A DNA stretch of 64,000 bases from a bacterium (GTDB taxonomy: Bacteria; Bdellovibrionota_G; JALEGL01), in assembly GCA_022763185.1 (NCBI GenBank), contig JALEGL010000015.1, forward strand, positions 186,001 through 250,000, written 5' to 3'. Each line of letters starts with the position of its first letter. The stretch's first letter is position 1. Made by a program: the position numbers and the translations under genes. A model generated the notes under the pieces. It did no database searches and was not told the origin of the DNA. It saw nothing but the letters and a program-made list of their open reading frames with translations. Shown one piece after another: positions 288-53,031 of the stretch.

Positions 288-3200
288 GCTTTACTTTCTC
301 CTGTAACGATATAACGAAAATCTTGATAGTAGGAATACAAGCAGGGCACTAAAAATAAAGTAATCAACATACCAAACAACAAACCCCAGCCCATGGCCAA
401 CATCATCTCTGCCAACATGGAGTCATAGCCTCCCAAGCCATAGGCGGTAGGAAAAAGGCCAGCAACTGTTGTAATGGTGGTCATGACAATCGCTCTTAAG
501 CGTGAGGATGAAATGATGGCGATGTTAAGCAGTTTTTTTTGCTTGGCTATCTTTGCTTGCTTGAGTTTATCAATCAAAACAATGGCATCATTGATCACCA
601 CGCCCATCATCCCCAAGGTTCCAACAATGGCAAAAAAACCATACTGGGCATAACCATGTAAATAAAAGGCCAGGGTTGTGCCCACGATACCAAAAGGAAT
701 AATCATGGCAATCACTATTGGTGTTAAAAACGAATCAAACAGCCAAATCAACAATAAGTAAATCAAGGTGAGTGCCATCAAAACTGAAATTAAAAAATCA
801 GCTTGTGACTCTCTGGATTCTTCTACTTCTCCCCTAAAAACAATGTTTGTTGAGGGATTGTTGTTAAGAACTTTAGGGATTAACTTTGTTTCAATCTGCC
901 TTGCTATTTCTAAAGGCGTTACCGTGCTTTGTGCTTTGATGTCTGCATAAATCTTGCTTGCTCTTTTGTAATTTACCCTTTCAATGGAAGAGGGTTTTTT
1001 TTCTGCTTTAAAATCTAAAATACTGGCTATGGGCACCAGATAGTTTTCCCGGTTGGCCACGGTTAAGCGTGAAATTTTTTTAATATCATCTTTACTTTTG
1101 TCTTGTCCTGTTAAGCGGACATCCACCTCTTCATCACCATTGTTTAAGGTGTATAAAATATCACCTTCAACATAGGTTCTTAACGTACTGGCTATGTCTT
1201 GATAGGCAATCCCCAAGCGATCAATGCGTTTTTTATTTAAGAGCAGTTGATATCGATCTTTTTGCAATGGTTCTTCTATCTCTACGTTTTCAATGGCAGG
1301 CAATTCTTGCATGGCTTTTTTCAGTTCTTGCGCTACCTTTTCTCGCAGTTCATCATTGTTTTCCTGAATTTCAAGTGCAATGGGGCTGCCACTGTCAAAA
1401 CCAAACCTGGATTTCATAAATCTAATTTCTTTAAAGCCCTTAAGTTTATCCGTTTGCTGTTGCCATTGATCAATCATGGCATTGAGCGACACATTTCTTT
1501 CTGAAGGGGGCACAATTTCTACAATGACGGTTGCTTCATTTTCTCTGACCTCGCCACCTCGCCAACTTTGGCCAATGTATGTTCTGACCGAAGTCACACC
1601 GTTGTCAGGTTCATCCAAAAAAATCTTTTCAACTTGCGTCACATGCTTGGCCATTTGCATGCGCTTGAGCGGTTCACTGGCTACAACCTTAACCCTAAAA
1701 TCCTTGGACTCTTCTCTTGGAAACATCACATAACGTAAATGCTGCTTAAAAATATAGCCGGATAAAAACAACAATCCCAAAAAGACAAGCAAAAGCAAAA
1801 ACCGAAACTTCAAGGCTGTGTACAAAATTTTTGTGTAACTGGATTCTATGCGTTTTAAAAAAATTTGCCGCCAATGTTTGGCCTTAGCCGGTTTTAATTT
1901 TTTTAATACACTCCCAAGTTTACTCTTGTGAGCAATATGGCCGGGCAAAATAAAAAATGATTCAATCAAACTGGCAGTCAGCATTAAAATAATGATGGTG
2001 GGAATGTATTTAACAAACATACCAAAACGACCTTGAAAAAAATACAGAGGCAAAAAGGCTGCGCAGGTGGTTAAGACACTGGCAAGCACCGGTGAAGCCA
2101 CTTGCAAGGTGCTGCTTACAACCGTGCCGTCTTTATAGTTTTTTCCTTTATGCCGAACAATATTTTCAGCGACAATAATGGCATCATCCACCACAATTCC
2201 CAGCACAATAATAATGGACGCCAGCGTCATGTTGTTGATGGTAAAGCCAAGAACCAAAGCTGCAATCAGGGTGAAACCTAAAGAAAAGGGAATGCCCATG
2301 GCTACCCAAATCCCAGACCTTAAATCCAAAAAGATAAATAAGAAAAAAACAATCAAGATAAAACCAATAAGACCGTTGGTGCTGATCAGGTCAATCCTAT
2401 TTTTTACGTCATAGGATTCATCATCAATAAATACAAAGTCTACCGGTAAGTTAGGGTTGTTCTTAATGTATTGTTTAACAAAAGTATCGATGGCTTTTTG
2501 TGCTGATAAAATATCTGATGTTGTCGTCTTTTGGACATTGAGAATAATGCCTTCCTTGCCTTGCACTTTATGCACACTGTTGCTTTTTTCAAACTGTTCT
2601 TCTACGTGGGCAATGTCTTTTAATTTTAAGCGCTGGCCTTCAAAACCAACATTGATAACCGCATTGGACAGCGAATCAATGTCCATCAACTGTGCATCTA
2701 AATTGATTTCTGTTTCTTTTTTATCCATTAAGCTGCCAATGGGATAACGCACATGTTGATTAAGAATTTGTTGTCTGACTTGCTCTAAAGAAATTTCATA
2801 GCGTTGCAGTTTTTTGGGATCAATTTTAATCTGTATCTCCGGGCGTAAATAACCCGAGCTGTCAACACCGCTGACCTGAGCAAGAGATAATAGGCGGTTT
2901 TTAAAACTGAGTACATAGGCTTGAAGTTTTTGCCTGTCTTTGACACTTAGAATTTCAACATCTTTTAAGTAAATCCCAATATCAATGATGGCTTTTTCTG
3001 AGCTTTTAAACTGCCTATAGACTGGATCTCGTGCTTCTCTGGGAAACTCTACCGTTTCCACTGCATCTTTTACTTCCTGAACTTTTTCTCTTAGGTCTGG
3101 AATATTAGCATCAAAGTATACTCTGATACTGCTTACAGCATAGGATGAACTGGCATTGACTTCTTCTAAAGCAGAAACCCCTTTGAGTTTTTCTTCAATG

Positions 3201-11034: not shown

Positions 11035-11469
11035 ATGAGACATTTAATCCCTATATATAAAGAAAAGAAAATAAGTTTTACTCAATGGCTCATCGCTTGG
11101 GCAGTTTTATTTTTATTGAGTAATTTTTACGCAGAAGATATTTTAAAAAGCAGTTTAGGACTCTCACTCTCCATGTATTGGCTGTATTGCATTGGCACTG
11201 TAGGACTGGTCTCATATGAGTTTATCCGCCGCGAGCCTTCTATAAAAATAGCCAATAGTTTTGCTCTTGCAGTCTTGTTGATTCATGCTTATTTTTATAT
11301 CACCAGCCTTGTGCAGTACAGCTCAGGTCATTATGAGGCCATAAAAGCTTTGTATATGCTAACCATGGTCGAAACTATAATTGTAAGTGTATTTTTAGTC
11401 ACTAAGCTTATGGTCAAGGGTATCAAATCTAAAAGCCCTGATAAATTTAAGCAACAGCGTTTAATATAA
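11035..11469 (+). CDS. Small integral membrane protein, 144 aa (paralogue of the 8695 gene)
   Basis: Unrecognised; four hydrophobic segments. It matches the 142-residue protein at 8695-9123 in length, segment spacing and several motifs (G-x-x-SY-x-x-I, a central IH, and the terminal ETIIVSVFLVTKL against EGLILAILIVAKL). The N-terminus is basic and cytoplasmic-looking. The ribosome-binding site is weak. It is convergent with the 11639 gene. Confidence 0.6.
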   Translation: MRHLIPIYKEKKISFTQWLIAWAVLFLLSNFYAEDILKSSLGLSLSMYWLYCIGTVGLVSYEFIRREPSIKIANSFALAVLLIHAYFYITSLVQYSSGHYEAIKALYMLTMVETIIVSVFLVTKLMVKGIKSKSPDKFKQQRLI

Positions 11470-18792: not shown

Positions 18793-19359
18793 ATGAAAGC
18801 TTTAGGAATCGCCGTGATGTTGGCTTGGAGCATGTGCTTTGCACAGCAGGCGCCGCAAGCACCCTATCAGCTAAAGGTTAACTCCGTCACTTATACATCA
18901 GATACTCTAAATCTCAGCGATGACGCCTTAGGCAGCTTGGCGCAGTTTCTCAACCTTTTTCATGGGACCTATTCACCCAGCAACGAGTGCAACGCTGCTT
19001 TTCAACAGCTCACTTTCAGCAAAGCCTTGATTGAATGCAATGAAAAAAATGAATCTTTTATCAGCATAGGCATAAGCAAAGGCTCTGAGGCCAGTTCAGA
19101 AAATACCATCATCGGAACGGTGACCAAGCATATGACCAAAACCGAATATAAAGATGGAATTCCCACAACAAGTAAGGTTTTATTTTCAACAAAGGGAAGC
19201 TATGATCAAAGCGCGTCAACATTGAAGCAGAGCATTGATATGATGGGCCATCTTATTGAAGAAACCTATAAGTTAACCGATCAAGGCCTTTACGTGGTCT
19301 ATGATTCCAATCAACTGGGCAGCATTGACTGCCGTTATGAACGATTTGTCCAGCCTTAA
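18793..19359 (+). CDS. Secreted hypothetical protein, 188 aa (first of a tandem paralogue pair)
   Basis: Unrecognised. A signal peptide (MKALGIAVMLAWSMCFA) follows AAGGAG at good spacing. The mature protein shares a layout with the next gene: a FL-x-x-F-x-GTY-x-x-x-x-ECN motif at about 55, a central glycine-rich strand (IIGTVTKHM), a strand-forming repeat (KGSYDQS), and a final IDCRYE. Two conserved cysteines (ECN near the start, DCR at the end) probably pair. The fold is likely a small beta-barrel, but that is inference. Confidence 0.7.
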   Translation: MKALGIAVMLAWSMCFAQQAPQAPYQLKVNSVTYTSDTLNLSDDALGSLAQFLNLFHGTYSPSNECNAAFQQLTFSKALIECNEKNESFISIGISKGSEASSENTIIGTVTKHMTKTEYKDGIPTTSKVLFSTKGSYDQSASTLKQSIDMMGHLIEETYKLTDQGLYVVYDSNQLGSIDCRYERFVQP

Positions 19360-19463
19360 TTTAAAATCATCAAGGTCAATGCGTCGCGCTATATAGCCTT
19401 GACTTTTTCATTTTAATCTCTTAGTTATGCTTGCAACACATCAACGATGTAGAAAGGGAAGAA

Positions 19464-20036
19464 ATGAAAAAAATAGTTTTAATATTAATATTGATCAGCT
19501 TTAGCGTGTTTGCACAGAATACGTCTACACTTAACTTGGAAAATCCAAAATATACGTCAACTACAATGATGTACAGTTCATCGGCAATCACAAACATTCT
19601 TCAAGCTTTGAATAATTTCTACGGTACGTATCAAGCTCAAAGTGACTGCAATGAAATTTTGTTTAGGACCTTCGTGTTCTCTTCACCCTATGTAGGCCAA
19701 ACCAATATCGGAACCCGCATTGTAGGAATTGATTTAACTAAAAACAACAGTACTAATCTTGATGAGACTATCTTGGGTAGCGTTGAGTACGACGCGACTT
19801 TGGTGGAAACATATAATCCTCCTTTAAGAGATGGTAGGACCGGTGCAACCACAACGGGAAAATACAAAGTCACGGGATCATTCAATCAAGCAGATTTAAT
19901 TTTAACCCGTGTCATCAATGAGTTTGGAGATGAGATCAAAGAAGAGTATCAATACTTTACAGATAGCGATACTTTAAAAGTCACTTACAGTTCCAGAACT
20001 GCGCCTACGATCTCATGCGTTTTTGAAAAACAATAA
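19464..20036 (+). CDS. Secreted hypothetical protein, 190 aa (second of a tandem paralogue pair)
   Basis: Paralogue of the preceding gene. Matching blocks include LNNFYGTYQAQSDCNE against LNLFHGTYSPSNECNA, ETILGSVEYD against NTIIGTVTKH, VTGSFNQAD against TKGSYDQSA, and ISCVFE against IDCRYE. The start at 19464 gives the signal peptide MKKIVLILILISFSVFA, with GGGAAG just upstream; an in-frame TTG 33 bases earlier is unlikely. A terminator follows at 20066. The function is unknown. Confidence 0.7.
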   Translation: MKKIVLILILISFSVFAQNTSTLNLENPKYTSTTMMYSSSAITNILQALNNFYGTYQAQSDCNEILFRTFVFSSPYVGQTNIGTRIVGIDLTKNNSTNLDETILGSVEYDATLVETYNPPLRDGRTGATTTGKYKVTGSFNQADLILTRVINEFGDEIKEEYQYFTDSDTLKVTYSSRTAPTISCVFEKQ

Positions 20037-25250: not shown

Positions 25251-26315
25251 CTAGTTTTGATCTTCTTTTGACAATTCTTGCCAGCGCTCATACACCGCTT
25301 TGGCTATGGTCATCACGTGTTCTCGATACCAGGTTGGGCTGTTGTAGGTTTTGATGGCAAAGTCTTTTCTTGCTTCGCTTTCTCCCCAGGACTTGGATAA
25401 ATAGCGCCCAGCTAAGGGAATCATATCGTCTAAGTTGTTGGGGTCAAAGGCATCATCTTCTGTAAGGATGCCACGCAAGGTGGAGGGCATGAATTGAACG
25501 GGGGTAAAGGCGCCCACCCATGAACCCTCTATGGTTATGAAGGTTGTGGTAGACCAGTCCTTATCTTGCGCAATGTTCATTAAGTCACGCAGCTGAACAA
25601 TCGACTTTTCTCCTCTACGTTTGGCGCGTGAAATCCATATGCTTTTGCTTACAAACTTAGAGCCTTTAACAAAGGTTTTATCGGTCAGGTTGTTGGCAAA
25701 ACCATGATTTAAATCAATTGCGGTGTAATACTGCTGCAATACATGATTTCTAAAATCTTGGTCCAGCAGAGCAATCCAGCTGGCTAAGGTGGCTACGGTT
25801 GGAAACTTAACCACACCTTCATAACTGCCAAAAAAAGACTCAATGGATACAATTCCGCCAATGAAGGGTGCTTCAACGCCGCAGTTTTTCTCCATGTCTG
25901 ATAAAGTATAGCAATGCTGTTCTAAAAAAGCTTCGGTGGCTTGAATCGACGTATCCGACTGCAAACGGGCCAAGACATTGTCCAAACCTCTGTTTCTATC
26001 TTTAAACTTAGCCCCAATGCTTAAATCAATCCAAATGGCGTAGCTTTGAAACTCTAAGTTTTCAGCATTGATGTCATTCAACCAGCTTAAATCATAAATA
26101 TCATTGTTGTTTGCATGCTTGTTGCCAGAGCGTTTCTTGCTGAGTTTTTCACGAACTTTTTCTAATGCCTCGGCCCATAAGTCTGGATCTATCTGAATAT
26201 TTTCCGTCCACTGCATAAAGGCTGGCTTGTCTGAAGACCTATCTTGCGACCAAGCAGCTTGAACATGAAATAAACAAACCCACAAACCTAAAAAGAATCT
26301 CATCACCACCGTCAT
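25251..26315 (-). CDS. Periplasmic lytic murein transglycosylase (MltB-like, SLT_2)
   Basis: A 354-residue exported protein (signal MRFFLGLWVCLFHVQAAWS). The MltB signature is clear: catalytic Glu159 in GGIVSIESFFGSYEG, the substrate groove GSWVGAFTPVQFMPSTL, and a later AGRYLSKSWGE ... KTYNS. It cuts peptidoglycan glycan strands with 1,6-anhydro formation. AAGGA precedes the ATG at 26315; an internal ATG at codon 5 is possible. There is no lipobox, so it is soluble periplasmic rather than lipid-anchored like MltB of E. coli. Confidence 0.85.
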   Translation of the reverse strand: MTVVMRFFLGLWVCLFHVQAAWSQDRSSDKPAFMQWTENIQIDPDLWAEALEKVREKLSKKRSGNKHANNNDIYDLSWLNDINAENLEFQSYAIWIDLSIGAKFKDRNRGLDNVLARLQSDTSIQATEAFLEQHCYTLSDMEKNCGVEAPFIGGIVSIESFFGSYEGVVKFPTVATLASWIALLDQDFRNHVLQQYYTAIDLNHGFANNLTDKTFVKGSKFVSKSIWISRAKRRGEKSIVQLRDLMNIAQDKDWSTTTFITIEGSWVGAFTPVQFMPSTLRGILTEDDAFDPNNLDDMIPLAGRYLSKSWGESEARKDFAIKTYNSPTWYREHVMTIAKAVYERWQELSKEDQN

Positions 26316-26656
26316 AAAGAATCCTTAGCGCAAGTCGTCAAAATCAACAAAGCAAAAACGTTTATATAGCTATAATTAGTTTTTATAGTATTTTTAAATA
26401 AGCTATCTTTAAAACTATAATTAAAAAAGTTAAAAAAAGATTTTTACCCACCCACTCAAACAGCGGGCCGTAAACGGCCCAAACTCGTGGCACGAAATTC
26501 TTTTTCTTTTTTATTCCGGGGACAGTCGACTGAATTTAATTTATGCAAATTAGGTTTAGATTAAAGTAGCTGTCTTCGGAATACTATAGGTTAACTATTG
26601 ATATTTATTCTAAAATTTTTAGAACAAAAAAGCCTATGTTATAATTGAGAGAAGAT
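26316..26656. other. Intergenic region with a hairpin and a second REP-like element
   Basis: AT-rich spacer between divergently transcribed genes. It contains a perfect hairpin GGGCCG-TAAA-CGGCCC (26465-26480) without a T run, then the REP-like palindrome at 26515. No coding frame is convincing. The prepilin promoter should lie in the last 80 bases. Confidence 0.5.
26515..26580. repeat. REP-like inverted repeat, second copy
   Basis: Left end TCCGGGGACAG (26515-26525) pairs with CTGTCTTCGGA (26570-26580) with two mismatches. It shares the GGGGACAG head and an AGTAGCTGTC tail with the element at 23287. The centre differs. It lies upstream of the prepilin gene. Confidence 0.5.
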
Positions 26657-27448
26657 ATGATAAATTCTCCTAAAAAAACAATTGGTTTTACGCTTGTTGA
26701 GCTGATGATTTCAGTTGCTATTATTGGTATTTTAGCTGCAGTATCCATCACTGCTTATCAAAAATACATCATAAATTCTAAAGTTTCTGAGGCTTATGGA
26801 ATGGTGCGAAAAATTTTTGATGGAGCTGCAACATACGCTCAAACATCTGCCATTATGGTTAAAGATTCAGATACAGGTGAACTTAAAGAATGTGTCAAAG
26901 CAAACAAATTTGGAAAGATTTCAGGATGGCCCAGTAATGATCCAAACATGCCGGGAAAAGTAAAAGCTTATGTTGATTATAGTGTTTTATTGCCCAGCCA
27001 GGGTGTAAGCTCTAGTCCTAGTTTTAGTAATGCTGGATTCAATTGTGGAACTACAAAGGATCCTTTACCTTCAGATTATGGTATAGGTGTTTCTTTATTA
27101 AGTAATTATTTTCAAGATTATTACCGCTACAGAACAAATAGTGAGATGTCCTTTGTTTATCATTTAATCCCTAATGATTATCAGCTGTTAGCAGATCTAT
27201 CCGCTGAAGGAAAAAATGCATCATCATCCATTAGAAGTGTTCATACCACTTCTTCAATTTGGGCAATCTCCGATTTAGATGGAGATTTTAATATGGATAA
27301 CGATGATTCAGTTGCAATTTCAGATTTTATTGATCCTCTTTCAAGAAGCAATAAACTTACCTATCTGACTCGAGGCATTTATATTGATACTGTTAGCGGC
27401 GATATAAAAGGTACCGATGGAATTTACACTGAAAATTTGGGAGAATGA
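26657..27448 (+). CDS. Type IV prepilin-like protein
   Basis: The 263-residue protein has a short basic leader and the class III signal G^[21 protein letters not shown], with Phe+1 and Glu5, for cleavage by prepilin peptidase. The mature head is larger than a standard major pilin and Ser/Asp-rich, with cysteines at KECVKAN and FNCGTT. It may be a minor pilin or pseudopilin. The ATG at 26657 follows GAGAG; an upstream TTG is possible. No other pilus genes are nearby. Confidence 0.85.
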
Positions 27449-28212: not shown

Positions 28213-29325
28213 TCAAATCCGCATTGGCATGATGACGCTGACGTAGTTGTCTGTGTCTGGAAGTTTAACCACGCCGGGGCTTTGATTGTGATCCAATTCT
28301 AGTTTAACCTTATCGGTTTGGACCACAGATAATGCATCCAATAAATACTTGGCATTAAAACCAATGGTCATTTCATCGCCGTTAAATTCAGCGGCAATGT
28401 CTTCTTCTGCTTCACCCAGTTCTGGAGAGTTGGCAGACAAATGCAGTTCATTGGCTTTAAATTGCATCTTAACGCATTTGGATTTGCCTTCAGATAACAA
28501 GGAAACGCGTTTCAACGATTCTTTTAAGTCATTCTTTTGTACCATAACAGTCTTACGGTCACCTTGTGGAATGACTTTGTTATATTCCGGAAAATCACCC
28601 ACCACCAATTTCATAAAAATGGTGTTGCTGTCATTGCTAAACACACATGTGGCTGGAGAAATAGAAACATTGATAGCACTGCCTTCACCTTCAGCTAAAA
28701 GCTTTTTTAATTCCATAATGCCTTTGCGTGGCAGAATAATTTTCTTTTCCATTTGCATGGTTTCTTCACTGCTTAAAGGGCTTTTGTACAAAGACAGTCG
28801 ATGACCATCGGTGGCCACCATGTTTAAATTTTTGTCGCTACCGATTTCCAATAAAATACCGTTAAGATTGGCACGCACTTCATCAGTACTCATGGCGTAA
28901 GAGGTATATTCAATGCCTTTGAGCAACGTATCTTTATTGACTTTATAAAAGGTAAAATCTGTTTTGCGCGGCATCTCAGGAAACTCGGCAGCATCGACGC
29001 TGGCCACTCTAAAATGAGCTTTGCCGCTTTTAATATTCAACCAACCTTTTTCGTCTTTTTCTAATTCAACAGTATTGTTGGGCAGCTGTTTAATAATATC
29101 AATTAGAGTATGAGCTGAGGTGCAGATTTTTCCTGGAACATCATTGTCAACCGAACATGAACTTTCAACAGAAATTTCTAAATCTGTGCCATAAGCGGTT
29201 AAGCTGTTGTCTTTGATATCCAACATGATGTTGGATAAAATAGGCATGGTGGTCTTTTTCTCGGTGACACTGACCACAGATTGCAAGACTTTCATTAGAT
29301 TTTGTTGTTCACAGGTCCATTTCAT
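28213..29325 (-). CDS. dnaN: DNA polymerase III beta sliding clamp
   Basis: A 370-residue clamp with three similar domains. Typical stretches include TMPILSNIMLDI at the start, YATDLEISVE-like TAYGTDLEISVE, MVATDGHRLS in the middle, and the terminal VKLPDTDNYVSVIMPMRI. It tethers DNA polymerase to the template. AAGGATAA precedes the ATG. It is transcribed away from dnaA across the origin, rather than following dnaA in the common dnaA-dnaN operon. Confidence 0.96.
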   Translation of the reverse strand: MKWTCEQQNLMKVLQSVVSVTEKKTTMPILSNIMLDIKDNSLTAYGTDLEISVESSCSVDNDVPGKICTSAHTLIDIIKQLPNNTVELEKDEKGWLNIKSGKAHFRVASVDAAEFPEMPRKTDFTFYKVNKDTLLKGIEYTSYAMSTDEVRANLNGILLEIGSDKNLNMVATDGHRLSLYKSPLSSEETMQMEKKIILPRKGIMELKKLLAEGEGSAINVSISPATCVFSNDSNTIFMKLVVGDFPEYNKVIPQGDRKTVMVQKNDLKESLKRVSLLSEGKSKCVKMQFKANELHLSANSPELGEAEEDIAAEFNGDEMTIGFNAKYLLDALSVVQTDKVKLELDHNQSPGVVKLPDTDNYVSVIMPMRI

Positions 29326-30071: not shown

Positions 30072-31427
30072 ATGGAGAAAACTTGGCAAAAAACGATTCA
30101 TCACTTGCAAGAGCGTTTACCTGCGCATGCCTTTAACACGTGGATTAAACCCTTAAGTTATAAAGATACACAGGATAATCAGATTTTTGTTGAAGTTCCC
30201 AATACCTATTATCGTGATCGCTTGCAAAGTACCTATTCTAGTATGATTAAAAAAACCTTGCGTGAGTTGAGTCAAGATTTAAACATGGACGTGGCTTTTG
30301 TGGTCTCTAGCAACACACCGGTGTTCAGTCATGATCAATTGCAAAAAATATCTCAAGAAAAAACCAGGCAAAAATTGGCGCAAAGCAAGCAACAAGAAGA
30401 AAAGATTCAGCAAAACCACACCCTTTACCCCCAATACACTTTTGAACAATTTGTGGTGGGTACCGGTAATCAGTTTGCCCATGCTGCCGCTCAATCGGTG
30501 GCCAGTCAACCGGGGCAACAATACAATCCCTTATTTTTATACGGCGGTGTAGGTTTGGGGAAAACCCACCTTTTGTGTGCCATTGGTCATCAAATCAAAC
30601 AAATCAATCCGGGCGCTAAAATTATTTATGAGACCTGTGAGCAATTTACCAACGGCATGATTAATGCTATTCGCTATCAAAAGACCGAACAGTTTAGAAA
30701 CCGCTACCGTAAAAACTGCGACTTGCTGCTTTTGGATGATATTCAATTTTTATCCAAAAAAGAACGCACACAAGAAGAATTTTTTCATACCTTCAATGTT
30801 TTACACCAACAAAACATTCAAATTGTGGTGACCTCAGATGAACTGCCCAAAAACATTCCGGACATTGATGACCGCTTGCGCTCACGCTTTGAGTGGGGAT
30901 TGATGTGTGATATTCAAGCGCCAGATTTAGAAACCCGGGTGGCCATTTTAGAGAAAAAAATCAGTGATCTTCATTTGGATGTTGATCAAGAGGTTTTGGT
31001 TTACTTGGCAGAAAAATTTCAAAATAACATACGGGCTTTAGAAGGGGCTTTAACTCGTTTAAGCGCGCAAGCTACTTTGTCCAACTTGAATATTGATAAA
31101 GCCTTTGCGCAAAGGGTGTTTTCTGATCAGGTCAGTGCCAGTGTGCTTACGCTAGAAACCATTATGGAGAAAGTGGCTAATTTTTTCATGTTGTCTGTGG
31201 CGGATTTAAAATCCAGTAGTCGTAAGAAAAACATAGCTTTTCCAAGGCAAATGGCCATGTACTTATGCCGCAAACATACCCGTCACTCGTTTCCTGAGAT
31301 TGGTCAAAAATTTGGCGGCAAGGATCACACCACCATCATGCATGCGGTTAAAAAAATTGAAGAGCTAAAAGACAAGCAAGACGATACGGCCCACACCTTG
31401 GCAGCAATAGAAAAAACCTTGAAATAA
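30072..31427 (+). CDS. dnaA: Chromosomal replication initiator DnaA
   Basis: A 451-residue initiator with all four domains: an N-terminal interaction domain (to about 80), a Gln/Lys-rich linker (about 100-120), the AAA+ core with GGVGLGKTH (near 158) and LLLLDDIQFL, and a C-terminal DNA-binding domain ending in GGKDHTTIMHAVKKIEEL, the DnaA signature. It binds the boxes just upstream. The ATG has only a weak ribosome-binding site, which fits tight control. Confidence 0.97.
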   Translation: MEKTWQKTIHHLQERLPAHAFNTWIKPLSYKDTQDNQIFVEVPNTYYRDRLQSTYSSMIKKTLRELSQDLNMDVAFVVSSNTPVFSHDQLQKISQEKTRQKLAQSKQQEEKIQQNHTLYPQYTFEQFVVGTGNQFAHAAAQSVASQPGQQYNPLFLYGGVGLGKTHLLCAIGHQIKQINPGAKIIYETCEQFTNGMINAIRYQKTEQFRNRYRKNCDLLLLDDIQFLSKKERTQEEFFHTFNVLHQQNIQIVVTSDELPKNIPDIDDRLRSRFEWGLMCDIQAPDLETRVAILEKKISDLHLDVDQEVLVYLAEKFQNNIRALEGALTRLSAQATLSNLNIDKAFAQRVFSDQVSASVLTLETIMEKVANFFMLSVADLKSSSRKKNIAFPRQMAMYLCRKHTRHSFPEIGQKFGGKDHTTIMHAVKKIEELKDKQDDTAHTLAAIEKTLK

Positions 31428-31567
31428 AGTCATAATAGCCAAAACTGGCCCAACAACAAAAGCACAAGTATCTGAATTATATGTGTTTTTATGTGGTATG
31501 TTTCTTGCTCTAAGTTTAATAGAATGAAGGCAAGTGTGTATAAAAAATTTTGGGGGATTGGATCTGT

Positions 31568-32914
31568 ATGTTCATAAAAAGAGTGTTGGCAATGCTGGCC
31601 TTGGCCAGCATTCTTGGTGTTAATCCGGTTTTGTCACAGAAGCTTGACTGTGCTTCGCTCTATCAAAGTCCGCAAGATGTTTGCCGTTGTTTTCTCAATC
31701 AGCAAGGTTTTATAGATGACGTGGAGGTAGCGTCGCTTTATCATTACTCTATTCTTAACAACATCAATTTACGGGTGTTGAGTAAAAACGAACAAGAAAG
31801 TCGAAAAGCATTGTTGCGTTTGGTATCCTTTCTGCATTATTTTCCTCAATTGAAATCGAGTTACGCACAAAACCGGTCTATACAAACGGTAAGAACCAGC
31901 GACGAACGTTCAAAAAGAGTAAACAGTTGCGATATGTTTCATGATCAATTGACGGTTTATGTTGAAGACTTGGTTTTTTTAGATAAAATTGAACAAAAAT
32001 TTATTGATCAGCAAATTATAGATCCTCGCCCAATTCAAAAACCTGACGCCAATATTCTTTTTGTGGTTGATGGCAGCAACTCGCCGCTAGCAACAAACAG
32101 TTTAGATCAAACTCACTTTTTTTGGGCTTTAAAGTCTATACGCGATAATTTAAAATTTCTTCCTAAACAAAGTAAGGTTAACTTTGCCTTGACCCGAATT
32201 TCAGTTGAAAGCAAATACATTGAGCTCAACAAAGATAAATACCTTTACCCATCGTATCAAAATATAGCGGTTTTTCGTCAATGGTTGGATGAGAGGTTGA
32301 GTGAATACACCACCGATAAACAAGTTTTTTTGGATTTTTTTGAAGAATATGAACCTTGGTTAGAACAAAGGTATGAAGGGGAAAAAAGATCATTTCAATA
32401 TTGGACAGAGGAATTTGCGAACACGCAAAATCCAAAAACAAAAGCAGCTAAAGAACAAGCTCAAGCTAGCTTGGAGTTCATTAAGAAGGAATACAACGGT
32501 GTTCAAGAAGTGAAAGCCAACATGAACTCTTTAAGCATAGAGCAAATTGTAAAAGCCTGTCCCATATCAATTGGGCGAGCTATTCGAAAAAAGATTTTTG
32601 CGCAAACCATGGAGTTGGATCACAGTGACCCTGAGGATTTGGTGCATGACGAAGGCATGAGAAACATACTGCGCAGTGAACAGTTTTCTGGTCAAGAAAA
32701 AAAACCCGACTGGCTGGTTTTTCTGAGCGATGGAGGCATTACCAATGTATTGCTAGAAAGCAGTCTAAACAACATAGACTTGGAAAAAAAACAGGTCAAG
32801 GCCTCTGAAGTAAAAATTCAATTGAAACCTTTAAAATCAGAGCAGTATCAACAAGAGTATTTTGATCAACTTTTTTCCACAACCTGGGTGCAAGTTTTAG
32901 CTCCTGTAGAATAA
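31568..32914 (+). CDS. Secreted protein with a VWA-like domain, 448 aa
   Basis: A signal peptide (MFIKRVLAMLALASILGVNPVLS) precedes a Cys-rich N-terminal region (CASLY, VCRCFL) and, from about residue 163, a Rossmann-like stretch ILFVVDGSNSPLA. D-x-S-x-S (from Asp168) matches the first MIDAS motif of von Willebrand A domains, and DWLVFLSDGG near 380 matches the third. A 120-residue helical insertion separates them. It may bind a metal and a protein ligand in the periplasm. It sits between dnaA and rpmH, an unusual place. The ATG at 31568 is chosen over an upstream TTG because it gives the signal peptide. Confidence 0.5.
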   Translation: MFIKRVLAMLALASILGVNPVLSQKLDCASLYQSPQDVCRCFLNQQGFIDDVEVASLYHYSILNNINLRVLSKNEQESRKALLRLVSFLHYFPQLKSSYAQNRSIQTVRTSDERSKRVNSCDMFHDQLTVYVEDLVFLDKIEQKFIDQQIIDPRPIQKPDANILFVVDGSNSPLATNSLDQTHFFWALKSIRDNLKFLPKQSKVNFALTRISVESKYIELNKDKYLYPSYQNIAVFRQWLDERLSEYTTDKQVFLDFFEEYEPWLEQRYEGEKRSFQYWTEEFANTQNPKTKAAKEQAQASLEFIKKEYNGVQEVKANMNSLSIEQIVKACPISIGRAIRKKIFAQTMELDHSDPEDLVHDEGMRNILRSEQFSGQEKKPDWLVFLSDGGITNVLLESSLNNIDLEKKQVKASEVKIQLKPLKSEQYQQEYFDQLFSTTWVQVLAPVE

Positions 32915-41627: not shown

Positions 41628-43115
41628 CTATGGGTTAAAAAAACAGGTTGAGCTGCAGTGAAGGGCGCCTCCTGGGAGAAAGTCGCTGCGCACGGGAACA
41701 ACTTCTTTAAACCATGGCTTTAAATGTTCTATCGCCTTAAGGTCTTGCTGTCCCAGCTGCTCAAAGGCTTTTACTATTTCAAGCGATGTTCTGTTGCTGT
41801 AGGTGTCGGGTTGGTCAAAGCTTGGAAAACTGGGCATGAGATAAGTGTCATCTAGAACAATTCCATTGATATAGCTGGCCATGTAGGAGCCAGCATTATC
41901 GTAAAAGTTACTGTACATGCCAGCAGCCTCAAGCCAATGTATTCTTGATTCTGGATAACCTGCTTGTTTCAAGGCTTCGAAGTTAAAGGCGTCAGCCGCC
42001 TGTGCTTGTTGATGCTTTTTATTGGCAAAGTCTTGTAAACAGCGCATGATTTGGGGAAAGTTGGGAAAAAGTTCATGGGCTTGATTTAAAAATGCTTGTT
42101 GTGAATCATGCCCGCTAAGATTGGAGACCCAATTGTTTTGGTTGATAAACTCAAAGGGGTCATTCCACTGACCAAAAGCAAATAAAGCAATGTACTTATG
42201 GTCTTTACTTTTGATGCAGTCGTTAATCTCACTCCTTAGCGCTGTAGCCAAGGTCAAAAAGTCTGTGGTGATGGGTTCGTTGTTATGAAAAGCTCTTCTA
42301 ATAAATATGTCAGGCTGCTTGCTTAAAAAAGCGTGTACTTTGCGTGTTTTTGGATGTTTGGCAAACATGACGATGGTATCGGTGTCTTGAGTAAATTCCC
42401 AGGGATTGGCTTTGAGAACGACCAAGCGATCAAAGTTGAGATAAGACCTTAAGTGTGTTTCAAGCTCTGCAGGTGTTTTTTTATTGCTGTCCAACATGCG
42501 TTGGGTGATGTAAAGGTGGCCTTGTTCTTTATCGGTGAGGATATCCGCCGGTCCGTTCCAACGCAAAGGAATGGAGACAAGAGAGTCTGTGTTGCTCAGT
42601 AGATCGTGTTTGAGAATGGGGTTTTGACCTTGCATCTGAACATAAATTTTGTTTTGTTGCCGGTCTTTAGCTTCTAAATAGCTGTTGTTACGCAGCCAAG
42701 CATAGTTTTTGCTGACGCATCGGTAACGAACGGTAGCCAAGCAGTTGTCTTGTTCATTTAAAGAGCAGGTCTTGTTTAGGCTTTGCTCAAAACCTTGAAC
42801 GAGAGGGTAAAGTGCCTTGTACTCGGATTCAAGCTCTTGGTTTTCAGGATGGCAGTGCTCCATGGTATCAACTTTAAGCAAGAGACTGAGCTCAATATTT
42901 TTTTTGTGCGCGACAAAAGCAATACGACTTAAAAACTGTTGCCAAATGGCTTCACCAGGAAAGTCAGAACCGCTTCTAACACTATTTTTTAAAGGAAGAA
43001 CCAGACGTTTAAGCGGCGAGTACTCTGGCATCAAGCTAAGGTTTGTTGCTTTATGTTGAGCACAAAGGCTAAAGCTAAACAAAAAATAAGAAAAGATATA
43101 GATTTTTAGAGTCAT
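41628..43115 (-). CDS. Secreted protein resembling the PAD/agmatine-deiminase fold, catalytic residues altered
   Basis: 495 residues with a signal peptide (MTLKIYIFSYFLFSFSLCAQ). Four landmarks occur in the order of guanidino-group-modifying enzymes: YAWLRNN (near 138; W-x-RD in enzymes), LRWNGPADIL with LYITQRML (185-208), FTQDTDTIVMF (241-251; GHIDMF-like), and the terminal GGALHCSST with Cys487. The nucleophilic Cys and one Asp (246) are kept, but the first Asp is Asn and the His is absent. So a degenerate deiminase fold in the periplasm is proposed; this is a by-eye alignment, not a proven family call. Confidence 0.5.
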   Translation of the reverse strand: MTLKIYIFSYFLFSFSLCAQHKATNLSLMPEYSPLKRLVLPLKNSVRSGSDFPGEAIWQQFLSRIAFVAHKKNIELSLLLKVDTMEHCHPENQELESEYKALYPLVQGFEQSLNKTCSLNEQDNCLATVRYRCVSKNYAWLRNNSYLEAKDRQQNKIYVQMQGQNPILKHDLLSNTDSLVSIPLRWNGPADILTDKEQGHLYITQRMLDSNKKTPAELETHLRSYLNFDRLVVLKANPWEFTQDTDTIVMFAKHPKTRKVHAFLSKQPDIFIRRAFHNNEPITTDFLTLATALRSEINDCIKSKDHKYIALFAFGQWNDPFEFINQNNWVSNLSGHDSQQAFLNQAHELFPNFPQIMRCLQDFANKKHQQAQAADAFNFEALKQAGYPESRIHWLEAAGMYSNFYDNAGSYMASYINGIVLDDTYLMPSFPSFDQPDTYSNRTSLEIVKAFEQLGQQDLKAIEHLKPWFKEVVPVRSDFLPGGALHCSSTCFFNP

Positions 43116-47897: not shown

Positions 47898-48345
47898 TCT
47901 GAATCAGAGTTTTGTTCAATTGAACAATGCATTGAAACGGTTAGGGGTTGTTAACGGTTATATTTAAGAGATGAGGAAACCATCATCAAAGTCAACAAAG
48001 ACAAAATCATGGTCGATGGGTAATCGTGGGGTTTACTTTATTTTAAGGCTAACAAATCTATTGTATTAATTGTATTATGCAATGATCAATAAATTCAATG
48101 AAATAAAGCATGATGGGCAGAAAAGAGCCAATCCTTTTTTTACAGTCATGGAAAAAACAACAGTCCTAGAAATTTAAACAGGAAAAAGTTGAGTAACACT
48201 AGCAGAACTCAATACTAAAAAACATAAAATAACGCAACACACAGTATTAAAAAAAAATTCAAAAAATAAATTTTTTTTTAATAAAACTATGCTAGTTCAC
48301 GATTCCAAGAAGAGTTATTGCAACATCGTTTTCTTGGGGGCAAAC
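47898..48345. other. Intergenic region before the giant secreted protein gene
   Basis: AT-rich, no supported gene. A short in-frame peptide ending ETIIKVNKDKIMVDG (near 47,975-48,021) looks coding-like but has no start. A frame extension from 48289 precedes the chosen GTG of the next gene. The promoter should be in the poly-A/T stretch before 48290. Confidence 0.35.
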
Positions 48346-51300
48346 GTGAAAAAACTGTTTAGGGGAATTGTTTTAACAGGGTGCATGTCAGCAAACCTAG
48401 TGTTTGCAGGGGACTATATTATTTCAGACCAGTGTTTGAACCAGGTTGAAAATATAAACTTATTTAGGAACACATCAAATCTTCAAGAAAAACTGAACTA
48501 CTTAAAAAAAGATTACAAAGGTGGACGTTTATACAATTATTCAGCTTTACGACACAATCTTGCAAACAACTTGACTGAAATTCAGAATGAATTGGACAAT
48601 AACCAATCTCCAATCAATAAACATCTGCGCATGTGCATGGTCAATCAACGGTATTGCCACAGGTACTTTAATCCAAACAATGAAATTCATCAGCGTTGGT
48701 TCTGTGCCACGCATATCTATAGGAATGTTCTTTCTGATCAATTTACACAATTTAATACCCTGGTTGAAAGATGTGGTGATGGCTCAGTGATGTTTCATAG
48801 CGCCCACTTTCCGGCAAGCGATCACCCTGCCTATCAAAGAGATTGTCATGATAAAAATGGGAACTCAAAACTAGAGTATTATAAAAACCAAAGAAAAATT
48901 GTTCAATCGGAAATGTTCCGTTATTACCAACAAATAGATGATACGGTTCATCAATCTAGCAAACCTGAGGCAGTGGGCTACATCATTGGTAAGCTCAATG
49001 AAACTATAGGAGAAGTTGAGTATGGAGATGTGCGAACAACGCACCATCAGTATCAAGTTGTGCGTTTTGCAAAAAGTATAGCGCAGTGTACTGTAGGCTC
49101 CAACAACAATTACAATAAATCAACGCTTGCTGCCACATCCGATTACGCAGCCTTTAGTCAAAATATCATGTCCATGTTTGAAGGCGCATCAGACGCCTTG
49201 ATTTATAATCCGCAAGAAACATATGAACGTAGTCAAATGGTGAATGCGTTTACGGCTGTTGAACGTTTTGATCACGAAGTTGCCTTGTTTCTAAACAAAG
49301 AACAATACAGATACAGTACAGCTGCATGCGATGATCTTCCAGAAGAAGAAAAAATAAACTGTATCTTGCAATCCTACAGCCAACAAGCGTGGTTGAGCAA
49401 AAGTGAAAGCGAACAAGAATTAGAGCGCAGAAAGTTACAAGTTTACGAACAAAACGCAATGAAAGGCGAAAATAGACGTTTAAAAAACTTAAGTGAAGCA
49501 GCCTATCCAAAAGTTTTTCGCGGATTCTTGCCCTATCATTTTTACCGGACGACCAATGCCAAAATTTTGATGGAGTTGCAAAAAATGAGCGTTGATCAAG
49601 GACGGCAGTATTTGGCAACAGAACAAAGCTTCATCAATTTTACGGAGCAATTGGTATGCGGAAAAAATGCCTTTCATTATTGTCAAGAACAATACAAAGC
49701 TAAACGCGTTGAATCCAGAAAAAAACTGTATCAAAATATTAAAAACGGAACTTACCGAGTGGCTTTCCATCCCACCCCACAAAAAACCGCACTGCGAAAA
49801 AGTATGGTCGACTTACTCAATGCTAAAATCAGTGATATCAATGACTACTGCTACAATGCTTCAGCTGAGCTAAAAGACCGTTTTGAAAACATGAGCATGG
49901 ATGAAACGTTTCCCTTTAATGCTATTGATGAGCAAGAGCGTTACACATTGATGAGCTTCTTGGAAGAAAAATTACAAAAATTGTATGCTACGCCTACCTT
50001 TGGCAGTTACTTTGCTCATTCCAGCATGATTGACTTATTAAACTTTGATGCGCAAGAGCGCTACAACACCTGCTTCAATCAAGGCTACGTATTTGGAGGA
50101 TCGTTAAAAAGCACCAAGACCTATAAAAGAATGATGGAAGATGCATCACACGGAGTCATTTCTTCAGCAATGCATCTCATGGATTTCAAACAACGGAAAT
50201 TGGCCTCTGATTTTCAAGTAAGCATGGCCAGCCTCCAAGCTGTAGAGCGTGCCTTAGAGCAAGATATCATGACAGAGCTTAATATCTTGGAGCAAAAAAG
50301 AAAGCTTAATACTCCAGAAGGACAACTCAACTTTTTGAAAGACAGCATAAAGTCACGGGTTTTTTCCCTGCTCGATTTTGCTTTGGATAACCCATCAGAA
50401 GGTTTAGGCGATACCTACTGCACGTTATTGGATGAAGCCAATTGTGACGAAGTGATGAAAGAAAACATGATCAAAATGGCAATGATTGTGCCGCACGTGA
50501 TGGCTTTGTTTTTGTTGCCTGGGGCGGGAAATATTGTAGTGGAACTAAGCATCGTTGGCGGGGCGTTAACTATCAGCAGTCTTGCTACCTATCAAATGAT
50601 TGTCATGCGTATAAACCAACAAAGCCAACTCGATCGGTCTTTGGCCAGCAGCAACATCAGCCCTCAAAACGCCGCATATTTACAAAGCTATTTTAGAAAA
50701 GATATAAAAAATTACACGGTAGTCCTTGCCCTAGAAGCAGCTGTTGTTGTTGCTACTGATTATGTTCTGATTAGAGAAGGTCTTAAAACCGTAAAGTATC
50801 TCCGACAAACAGGAGCCTTTCAAAAATATTTTTCACGACAAATGTTGATTGACCATGCCATTCGTGTTGCTCCCAAAGGTTCCGCAGGTTTTTTAAATCA
50901 ATACAGGTATTCTAGAGAGTTTTTTGCGCGTTCGGATCAAATATCAGATCAGGTGTTTGATGATTTTATTCGTGCTCTAAAAGAGGGTGAGGGTTTAAAG
51001 TTTTCAAAAAACAATTTTCCAAATCATTTTCCGGAGATAAATCCAAGTTTGGTTTCTCAAATGTTCAAATCAATAGGTAAAGGTTTGAACCATGTATGGA
51101 AAACTCTATGGGATATGCCTCTTTTAAAGCAAGTAAGCATAAATTATTATAAGGTTATGTACCAATACACTAGTAAATGGTGGGTGACAAGCAAACGCAT
51201 GACGGAAATTCTTAACGAAGCTTTAGAACGAGGACGCATCAGTCAACAACAGTTTGAAGAGTTAATTGAGGGCATGCCAGAATTTACTATTGTTAACGGT

Positions 51301-53031
51301 AAAGCGGTTTTAAAAATCAATTCAGAAATAAAAGTATTAGCCAAACGCTTCTTGGATGAGTATGTCATGGATACCAATGGCATGCGCAGCTTTTTGGAAC
51401 CCTTTGTTTACAGTGATATTCTTAGCCCACAGCAATGGCAGCGTGCCATTGCTAACTTTGAAAAAACAGGCAGAAAAATTTTAAGCAAAGAAGATGCTAA
51501 AATGTTTATTTCTGTCATTAAGTTTTCTCGTCGAGAAATCAATTCAATTGCAGATGAACTAAAACGTTCGGGTCAGTTTGTATCTGGTTACTATCAAAAG
51601 CGCACCAATTTTATATTGGACCACATGGATGAATTTTTAGATGTTGCTTATTTGGAACGTTTAAAACAAAGACAGCGCTTTATTCAATACCTAAAACAAA
51701 TGGGCAGAACATCTGAGGACCAAATAGATGAGCTGCACCGTTTTATCAATCAAATTGATGATTATGACTTGCATTACGCTTGGAATCATCAAGGAGAAAT
51801 TGCCCAAAAAATTGACGACATCACAGAAAGTTTACGCTCTCATTCAGGTAGGTTTTTTACCAATGAACACGTGATGTATTATATTCGAGAACAAGAGCAA
51901 TACGTGGACTATTTTTTTAAATCTTTAGACCAAGCTTTGGGACGAAATAACAGTAACCTGATCAAGCGTATACGGACCAAACGTTATGGTAGTGCGCAAC
52001 ATCGAAACTTCACCGATGCCTATGCTGAAGCCCGGCATAAAACAAAAATGCGTAAGACCATACATGGTGAATGTTCGTTGCCCAACTCGCCGGTTAAAAA
52101 AATTGCCAACAAAGTCATGGCCAACCAAGCCAAACAAATAAGTTTGGTGTCCAACACCTGGGGTTATGTCAGTGTAAAGTATGATGACTACGATGTACAT
52201 CAAGGCTTAGACATTGAGTGGATTACGCGCTTGGCTTATGACTTGGCCGTGCCTCAGTTGGGCACACACCTGTCCATGAAAGCTTTAACTTCAGGTGAGA
52301 AAAGGGCCGTATCCAAAATAGGCATGGAGTGGTTAGCAGGCATTCCTGTTTCTGCAGTAGAGTTTGGCGGGTATTGGTTTTTAAGTGAGCATTTGTGGAA
52401 TTCATCGGATCAAGCGGAAGCTCTTTTTGCCAAAGAAGTCAGGCAATCAGAAAATCTTCCCAAAGATTTAGGTGAGCTATTTAAAGGCTATCCAAAAATT
52501 TATCAGGGTGTAATGCAGCGCTTGGAAAAAGTTCAAAACTTCTTAATCCATGAGCATCCACCGGCTGTAATCAACGATGCCTTTTTATACGACTTGGCTG
52601 TTAAAGAAGGTTTGATTGATGAAGTTTTACAAAGTGATGCGGATTTTGAAAAAGAACTTTTGGATGCACTGTCTGACTTTATGTACGATGAAGCTTATGA
52701 TAGCAGACCCAAGTCCAACTTCCCTATTTTAGGCAACAAAGTTCGCTTGTTTGGCGATGGCTTTAAATCAAGAGAGTGGTTGATGGAAAACCAAGATATC
52801 CCTGCTTCTGTGCATGAATCTGTAGATAGAATTATGTTTTACCGTTTGTTTGATTTGTTTCCCAATAGCCAAATCAAGTACATCAGAAGTCAGCTGGTTT
52901 ATTCAATGTTATGCAAGTACAGGTACAGCCAGCGCATGACTGTTCCTGCGGCCATTGCCGTTTATGCAGCCATTAAAGCAGCCACAGACCCTATTAAGTA
53001 TCACCTGCGTGAACAAAATACAGGGCACTGA
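48346..53031 (+). CDS. Giant secreted/envelope orphan protein, 1,561 aa
   Basis: Unrecognised. The GTG at 48346 follows GGGGG and gives a signal peptide (VKKLFRGIVLTGCMSANLVFA); an ATG 57 bases upstream would mask it. The N-terminal half (to about 710) is Cys-rich with about 17 cysteines (such as MCMVNQRYCHRYF, CGKNAFHYCQEQ) and is helical. Two hydrophobic stretches (about 712-755, MALFLLPGAGNIVVELS; about 788-810, LALEAAVVVATDYVLI) could span a membrane. The C-terminal half is charged, helical and Cys-poor. This split suggests an oxidised outside half and a Cys-poor half, but which side is exposed cannot be read. No homologue is known to me. Confidence 0.75.
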   Translation: MKKLFRGIVLTGCMSANLVFAGDYIISDQCLNQVENINLFRNTSNLQEKLNYLKKDYKGGRLYNYSALRHNLANNLTEIQNELDNNQSPINKHLRMCMVNQRYCHRYFNPNNEIHQRWFCATHIYRNVLSDQFTQFNTLVERCGDGSVMFHSAHFPASDHPAYQRDCHDKNGNSKLEYYKNQRKIVQSEMFRYYQQIDDTVHQSSKPEAVGYIIGKLNETIGEVEYGDVRTTHHQYQVVRFAKSIAQCTVGSNNNYNKSTLAATSDYAAFSQNIMSMFEGASDALIYNPQETYERSQMVNAFTAVERFDHEVALFLNKEQYRYSTAACDDLPEEEKINCILQSYSQQAWLSKSESEQELERRKLQVYEQNAMKGENRRLKNLSEAAYPKVFRGFLPYHFYRTTNAKILMELQKMSVDQGRQYLATEQSFINFTEQLVCGKNAFHYCQEQYKAKRVESRKKLYQNIKNGTYRVAFHPTPQKTALRKSMVDLLNAKISDINDYCYNASAELKDRFENMSMDETFPFNAIDEQERYTLMSFLEEKLQKLYATPTFGSYFAHSSMIDLLNFDAQERYNTCFNQGYVFGGSLKSTKTYKRMMEDASHGVISSAMHLMDFKQRKLASDFQVSMASLQAVERALEQDIMTELNILEQKRKLNTPEGQLNFLKDSIKSRVFSLLDFALDNPSEGLGDTYCTLLDEANCDEVMKENMIKMAMIVPHVMALFLLPGAGNIVVELSIVGGALTISSLATYQMIVMRINQQSQLDRSLASSNISPQNAAYLQSYFRKDIKNYTVVLALEAAVVVATDYVLIREGLKTVKYLRQTGAFQKYFSRQMLIDHAIRVAPKGSAGFLNQYRYSREFFARSDQISDQVFDDFIRALKEGEGLKFSKNNFPNHFPEINPSLVSQMFKSIGKGLNHVWKTLWDMPLLKQVSINYYKVMYQYTSKWWVTSKRMTEILNEALERGRISQQQFEELIEGMPEFTIVNGKAVLKINSEIKVLAKRFLDEYVMDTNGMRSFLEPFVYSDILSPQQWQRAIANFEKTGRKILSKEDAKMFISVIKFSRREINSIADELKRSGQFVSGYYQKRTNFILDHMDEFLDVAYLERLKQRQRFIQYLKQMGRTSEDQIDELHRFINQIDDYDLHYAWNHQGEIAQKIDDITESLRSHSGRFFTNEHVMYYIREQEQYVDYFFKSLDQALGRNNSNLIKRIRTKRYGSAQHRNFTDAYAEARHKTKMRKTIHGECSLPNSPVKKIANKVMANQAKQISLVSNTWGYVSVKYDDYDVHQGLDIEWITRLAYDLAVPQLGTHLSMKALTSGEKRAVSKIGMEWLAGIPVSAVEFGGYWFLSEHLWNSSDQAEALFAKEVRQSENLPKDLGELFKGYPKIYQGVMQRLEKVQNFLIHEHPPAVINDAFLYDLAVKEGLIDEVLQSDADFEKELLDALSDFMYDEAYDSRPKSNFPILGNKVRLFGDGFKSREWLMENQDIPASVHESVDRIMFYRLFDLFPNSQIKYIRSQLVYSMLCKYRYSQRMTVPAAIAVYAAIKAATDPIKYHLREQNTGH

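What the first reader, a model, noticed from the sequence alone, without database searches (positions are those of the whole stretch)
48346..53031. 1,561-residue exported orphan with a Cys-rich half and a Cys-poor half
About 17 cysteines in the N-terminal half, two possible membrane segments in the middle, and a highly charged helical C-terminal half. No known domain. Its size and place near the origin suggest a major envelope or contact-dependent role.
Basis: partly seen in the sequence, partly recalled or inferred. Interest (0 to 1): 0.5.

Follow-up and report, generated by a model that had tools for sequence, protein, structure and literature searches.

The report
Order-restricted giant exported helical protein
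A very large, probably exported protein with no recognisable domain turns out to have very divergent counterparts in relatives from one small bacterial order, with cysteines far better conserved than the rest, which suggests a disulfide-braced envelope or secreted protein of still unknown job.

Summary
The ORF is real: GTG start at 48346 behind a GGGGG Shine-Dalgarno, 1,561 aa, a Sec-type signal peptide by eye, host-like codon usage. It is not a strict orphan. One full-length homologue (1,524 aa, 24% identity) and one cut by a contig end (1,131 aa) lie in two other families of the same order; the two other genomes held for the phylum have no detectable copy. Nothing convincing turned up elsewhere; Pfam, NCBIfam, PHROGs, PADLOC and the PDB give no credible match. 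Cysteine is by far the best-conserved residue (12 of 17, against 24% overall), and the only two cysteines of the window's C-terminal half are present in all three genomes. I therefore read both halves as extracytoplasmic, braced by disulfides, around a hydrophobic hairpin that inserts in or lies on a membrane; a further hydrophobic stretch at 1329-1347 leaves the topology open. AlphaFold models were too poor to assign a fold (mean pLDDT 52 and 35); their secondary structure is almost all helix. A 'major envelope or contact-dependent role' stays unproven. Most likely: a structural envelope protein of one lineage; a secreted membrane-inserting effector is the main exciting rival.

The parts
48336..48340 (+). 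Shine-Dalgarno-like GGGGG, 5 nt before the GTG start
   Evidence: sequence printed
48346..53031 (+). coding sequence of the protein, 1,561 aa and stop; GTG start
48346..48408 (+). Sec-type signal peptide (residues 1-21), cleavage after VFA
   Evidence: by eye on the translation; homologue L007 has a like signal at the same place
48433..48846 (+). N-terminal cysteine cluster: C30, C97, C104, C120, C143, C167, all matched by Cys in L007 (L008 is cut off here)
49657..50073 (+). second conserved cysteine region: C438 and C446 (kept in L007), C502 and C576 (kept in all three)
50470..50613 (+). hydrophobic hairpin with Gly and Pro, residues 709-756 (possible membrane segments)
50716..50775 (+). hydrophobic helix, residues 791-810, with a Glu present in all three genomes (E797)
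52072..52074 (+). codon of C1243, Cys in all three genomes
52330..52386 (+). further hydrophobic stretch, residues 1329-1347, found on one of two scales
52912..52914 (+). codon of C1523, Cys in all three genomes
53020..53028 (+). extreme C-terminus TGH; homologues end TGG and TGR
   Evidence: alignment

Best explanation
A Sec-exported, almost wholly alpha-helical giant protein of the cell envelope. After signal-peptide cleavage both halves are extracytoplasmic. The N-terminal half is pinned by several disulfides and the C-terminal half by one (C1243-C1523). The hydrophobic hairpin in the middle dips into or sits on a membrane and anchors the protein. It works as a structural or scaffolding element of the envelope (or surface) of one bacterial order rather than as an enzyme. 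Shown: reading frame, homologues, spread within the genomes searched, cysteine conservation. Inferred: export, disulfides, topology, helicity, scaffold role.
For: A signal peptide is seen by eye in both full-length members. Cysteine is the best-conserved residue: 12 of 17 window Cys match a Cys in L007 (71%; chance expectation 0.2 pairs; overall identity 24%). C502, C576, C1243 and C1523 are Cys in all three genomes. C692 with C700 in the window has a like pair in L008 (279, 286), and both are missing in L007, the pattern expected of a disulfide gained or lost as a unit. C-terminal parts hold few Cys (2 of 731, 5 of 754, 3 of 726) against 52 of 5,039 in 15 cytosolic window proteins (P = 0.019, 0.21, 0.059), as exported proteins tend to. 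DsbA-family matches occur in 5 of 5 phylum genomes. The G002 homologue aligns over 386-1551 and 75-245. Model secondary structure is almost all helix. In the part covered by all three members only one invariant residue is His (H610), so no metal or catalytic-triad signature stands out there.
Against: No fold, partner or experiment supports a scaffold role. The Cys depletion is weak (P 0.21 in L007) and not independent between homologues. Seventeen is odd, so at least one mature Cys is unpaired within a monomer. DsbA-family genes also occur in the two genomes without the protein. The hairpin shows no positive-inside signal, and a further hydrophobic stretch at 1329-1347 could add a crossing and put part of the C-half inside. 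Sequence drift is fast: 24% identity while SLT_2, DnaA and YidC are 50, 49 and 45% and MnmG is 64%, which fits changing selection as well as it fits structure. No copy was detected in G001 and G004.
Confidence: 0.38

Rival explanations
1. Bitopic or polytopic inner-membrane protein: disulfide-rich N-half outside, helical C-half (or part of it) in the cytosol, linking an outside sensor or anchor to cytosolic partners.
For: The Cys contrast between the halves (15 of 17 in the first half), the hydrophobic middle and the extra stretch at 1329-1347 would fit.
Against: The two C-half cysteines of the window are Cys in all three genomes; C-parts are poor in Cys; the hydrophobic block contains Pro and Gly in all three and is 48 and 51 residues long in two of them, enough for a hairpin (33 in L007).
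Confidence: 0.24
2. Secreted effector or toxin-like protein: soluble, disulfide-braced helical protein whose hydrophobic hairpin inserts into another cell's membrane, as helical pore-forming proteins do (that comparison is recalled).
For: A hydrophobic block with few charges (3, 1 and 4 charged residues in blocks of 48, 33 and 51) inside a large soluble-looking protein, fast divergence (24% against 45-50% for SLT_2, DnaA and YidC), patchy presence (3 of 5).
Against: No immunity-like gene behind any of the three (all followed by convergent genes); no variable C-terminal tip (identity by blocks of 100 is about as high at the C-end as elsewhere); no PDB or Pfam match to a pore-former.
Confidence: 0.2
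3. Exported enzyme of an unrecognised family.
For: Size, and some invariant acidic residues in the C-half.
Against: No family match over a cut-off; only one invariant His in the part covered by all three.
Confidence: 0.1

Closest known systems
Uncharacterised homologue in MAG HKST-UBA30, labelled 'Bdellovibrionales bacterium' (JAGRAY010000001.1; L007:2446-7020)
   Same: Full length (1,524 aa), signal peptide by eye, 12 shared cysteines, hydrophobic middle, C-terminal TG-x end, near dnaA
   Different: 24% identity; lacks C692/C700; four mature Cys (700, 914, 918, 1027) without a window counterpart; other neighbours (gyrA, SLT_2 transglycosylase)
ZorA (PADLOC PDLC00650, weak hit of L008 only, E 0.0002)
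   Same: Long helical stretch; L008 207-512 aligns to ZorA model positions 596-841
   Different: Only a late part of the 1,063-position model matches; window and L007 do not match; read as a helix-composition match
Helical pore-forming proteins (recalled group, no call)
   Same: Large helical protein with a hydrophobic hairpin
   Different: No sequence or fold match found, but the models are too poor to exclude one

Membership tests
The order-restricted family defined here | collinear similarity over most of the length and shared cysteines | tested here: met
   the third member is cut at its 5' end
Any Pfam, NCBIfam or PHROGs family | match over the curated cut-off, or for PHROGs an E-value below 0.001 | tested here: not met
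   best: NF001070 E 0.0007, 19.9 bits against a cut-off of 117, absent from both homologues; best PHROG E 0.023
ZorA (Zorya defence) | MotA/ExbB/TolQ-type membrane motor domain (its place at the start of the model is recalled) | tested here: not met
   0 of 2 other members hit; L008 hits only model positions 596-841 of 1063
ZorA (Zorya defence) | ZorB and further Zorya partners alongside | not tested
   neighbouring ORFs were read by eye only
Lipoproteins | lipobox Cys at the end of the signal peptide | tested here: inconclusive
   the window has LTGC at residues 10-13, very early; the Cys is not shared by L007; no predictor was run
Disulfide-bonded exported proteins | oxidised cysteine pairs | not testable with these tools
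   only conservation and co-loss seen
Contact-dependent (polymorphic) toxins | variable C-terminal toxin tip with immunity gene behind | tested here: not met
   C-terminus alignable in three genomes; next gene behind is convergent in the window, L007 and L008
Helical pore-forming proteins | matching fold | tested here: inconclusive
   models too poor; fold search of the N-part gave E >= 0.65, VIA-align best Z 7.8

The most novel reading that the evidence does not exclude
A founding member of a new class of giant, disulfide-stapled helical proteins that insert a hydrophobic hairpin into a membrane, perhaps that of a neighbouring cell, invented within one order of a barely sampled phylum of which one genome is labelled 'Bdellovibrionales'.
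Probability: 0.13. Interest if true: 0.65.

Novelty: new member of a known kind. Interest (0 to 1): 0.33.

Why it matters
It turns an 'orphan' into a small real family with a testable topology, in a phylum of which only five species genomes were held here. If the hairpin acts on other cells it would be a new kind of envelope weapon; if it is a scaffold it would be a lineage-specific answer to envelope architecture. As it stands it is one of many lineage-restricted large exported proteins.

Tried and rejected
Family scans (Pfam whole and in seven pieces, NCBIfam, PHROGs, PADLOC): nothing credible; weak hits such as NF001070 (E 0.0007, residues 1052-1141) are absent from the homologues. PDB sequence searches with the protein and three profiles: best E 0.079, a glutathione transferase, taken as chance.

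Phage match MT836895.1 (E 0.002, 31.5% over 8% of the query): rejected; a profile comparison gives probability 0.6% and a different place. No match in plasmids; the pattern scan of viral contigs confirmed none. Two weak profile hits in G073 and G100 (E 0.004 and 0.007, 63 and 46 positions, the first with four stops) were taken as chance and dropped.

Internal duplication, N-half against C-half: hhalign probability 0.1%, rejected. AlphaFold: N-part mean pLDDT 52.5, C-part 35.3. Fold searches of the N-part list 14-3-3, nuclear transport, dynein-tail and other helical proteins, best Z 7.8, within what the tool says unrelated helical models give; not used. Fold search of the C-part was not run because the model is meaningless, and the 'viral' library was not searched.

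Reach of the absence: the two genome-contig scans use a few short peptide patterns. The whole-genome profile searches covered 385 genomes plus phyla of 2, 4, 17, 24 and 57 genomes, which partly overlap them; those five phylum searches held no genome known to match, so their empty answers are weak. Distant members in unsampled lineages cannot be excluded; no Bdellovibrio genome was searched by name. Paper searches (listings with the starts of abstracts only, no paper opened) showed nothing on this protein; 'HKST-UBA30' gave 0 papers.

Full report
What is there. The frame 48346-53031 (+) encodes 1,561 residues. The longest listing starts at ATG 48289, but the GTG at 48346 has a GGGGG ribosome-binding-like sequence 5 nt upstream (sequence) and begins exactly at a Sec-type signal peptide (by eye). 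A stop-free run of this length has a chance of about 10^-46, the other five frames hold 77-128 stops, and codon usage correlates 0.955 with a pool of ten other window genes, so it reads as a native gene. It stands alone: a 2,4-diaminopentanoate-dehydrogenase-like gene ends 448 bp before the GTG, and a convergent ferritin-like (Dps-type) gene lies downstream.

Relatives. In the window's own genome it is single copy. In 39 genomes (own one included) two others match with the single sequence. A profile of three rows finds 3 of 5 genomes of the phylum: G000, G002 and G003, all of one order but of different families. G001 (same order, 96% complete) and G004 (same phylum, 95%) show none even at E 10; G002 is only 74% complete. 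In 385 genomes (the five included) 5 match at E 0.01: these three and two chance-level hits. The phyla of five of the six genomes with the best MnmG scores outside the phylum give 0 of 2, 0 of 4, 0 of 17, 0 of 24 and 0 of 57, with no positive control in those calls. The homologue in G002 is 1,524 aa; that in G003 runs off its contig end at 1,131 aa. BLASTP aligns window 386-1551 to G002 in one piece and 75-245 in a second; window to G003 E 3e-16; G002 to G003 E 9e-6.

Place. In the window dnaA starts at 30072 and the gene at 48346, past parA-parB. In G002 dnaA starts at 11274 and the homologue at 21446 of the contig, past gyrB-gyrA with one lipoprotein-like ORF between, 54 bp before it (gene names by eye, DnaA). 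So both are within 20 kb of dnaA but on different sides. Of the G003 contig I read the last 19 kb: TatC, a class A penicillin-binding protein and SpoIID genes, no dnaA by eye. Nearness to the origin recurs in the two genomes where it could be judged; exact synteny does not. In G001 the parB flank holds ATP-synthase genes instead (by eye).

Cysteines. Eighteen in all, 17 after the signal peptide, 15 of these in the first half (P 0.001); in G002 11 of 16 (P 0.09). Twelve of the 17 match a Cys in G002 against 0.2 expected and 24% overall identity. C502, C576, C1243 and C1523 are Cys in all three genomes; the pair C692/C700 has a like pair in G003 and both are absent in G002. This is how disulfides behave, although 17 is odd and at least one must be free within a monomer. 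Since the only two C-half cysteines of the window are kept in all three, and C-parts are poor in Cys compared with 52 of 5,039 in 15 cytosolic proteins (2 of 731, 5 of 754, 3 of 726; P 0.019, 0.21, 0.059), I infer that the C-half is outside the cytosol too. This statistic is weak, above all for G002. DsbA-family matches occur in 5 of 5 phylum genomes, including the two without the protein, which permits but does not prove oxidation.

Hydrophobic parts. Residues about 709-756 form one hydrophobic block with Gly and Pro; L007 and L008 have like blocks, with 3, 1 and 4 charged residues and without a positive-inside pattern. A hydrophobic helix follows at 791-810 with a Glu kept in all three. A further stretch at 1329-1347 passes on one scale, and the homologues show other extra stretches of their own (L007 302-320 and 339-357; L008 379-397, which aligns with the 791-810 helix, and 485-503, 851-870 and 1098-1116). 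Two crossings, a re-entrant hairpin or more crossings are all possible. The last residues are TGH, TGG and TGR, an unexplained conserved end.

Fold. Two AlphaFold jobs on three-row alignments: N-part (22-600) mean pLDDT 52.5 with a better patch at about 400-590, C-part (480-1561) 35.3. Both are almost all helix, with one short strand pair in the C-part model. Foldseek best E 0.65, VIA-align best Z 7.8 among unrelated helical proteins: no fold can be named.

Reading. Best: a lineage-restricted, disulfide-braced helical envelope protein anchored by a hairpin, acting as structure rather than as enzyme (0.38). Main rivals: bitopic or polytopic protein with cytosolic C-half (0.24), secreted membrane-inserting effector (0.2), unrecognised enzyme (0.1). 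The fast drift (24% against 50, 49 and 45% for SLT_2, DnaA and YidC, and 64% for MnmG) and the patchy presence leave the effector reading open. Interest is modest: a real, new, small family of a common general kind, with function unresolved.

Noticed in passing
28213-29325 and 30072-31427: dnaN (by eye) is divergent from dnaA here, with a GC-skew switch near 30 kb, whereas G002 has dnaA-dnaN-recF-gyrB-gyrA in one direction (by eye).
   Followed up: no
31550-32914: Exported-looking 454-aa protein next to dnaA without a Pfam match; begins with a Cys-rich stretch and contains VDGSNS, which by eye resembles a von Willebrand-type metal site.
   Followed up: no
41628-43115: Exported-looking 495-aa protein without a Pfam match.
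   Followed up: no
18793-19359 and 19431-20036: Two tandem exported-looking proteins of 188 and 201 aa that look like paralogues by eye.
   Followed up: no
26645-27448: Type IV pilin-like protein ([28 protein letters not shown]) near dnaN, by eye.
   Followed up: no
25251-26315: SLT_2 lytic transglycosylase; its 50%-identical counterpart lies directly beside the homologue of the finding in G002, but in the window the two are 22 kb apart.
   Followed up: partly
L008:15307-15891: Gene convergent with the G003 homologue: a cytidine-deaminase-like protein that also reaches the cut-off of MafB19-deam, a family named after a toxin; probably an ordinary deaminase.
   Followed up: no
L007:1222-2391: Lipoprotein-like 389-aa ORF 54 bp before the G002 homologue, without a Pfam match; possible operon partner, not looked for elsewhere.
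   Followed up: no
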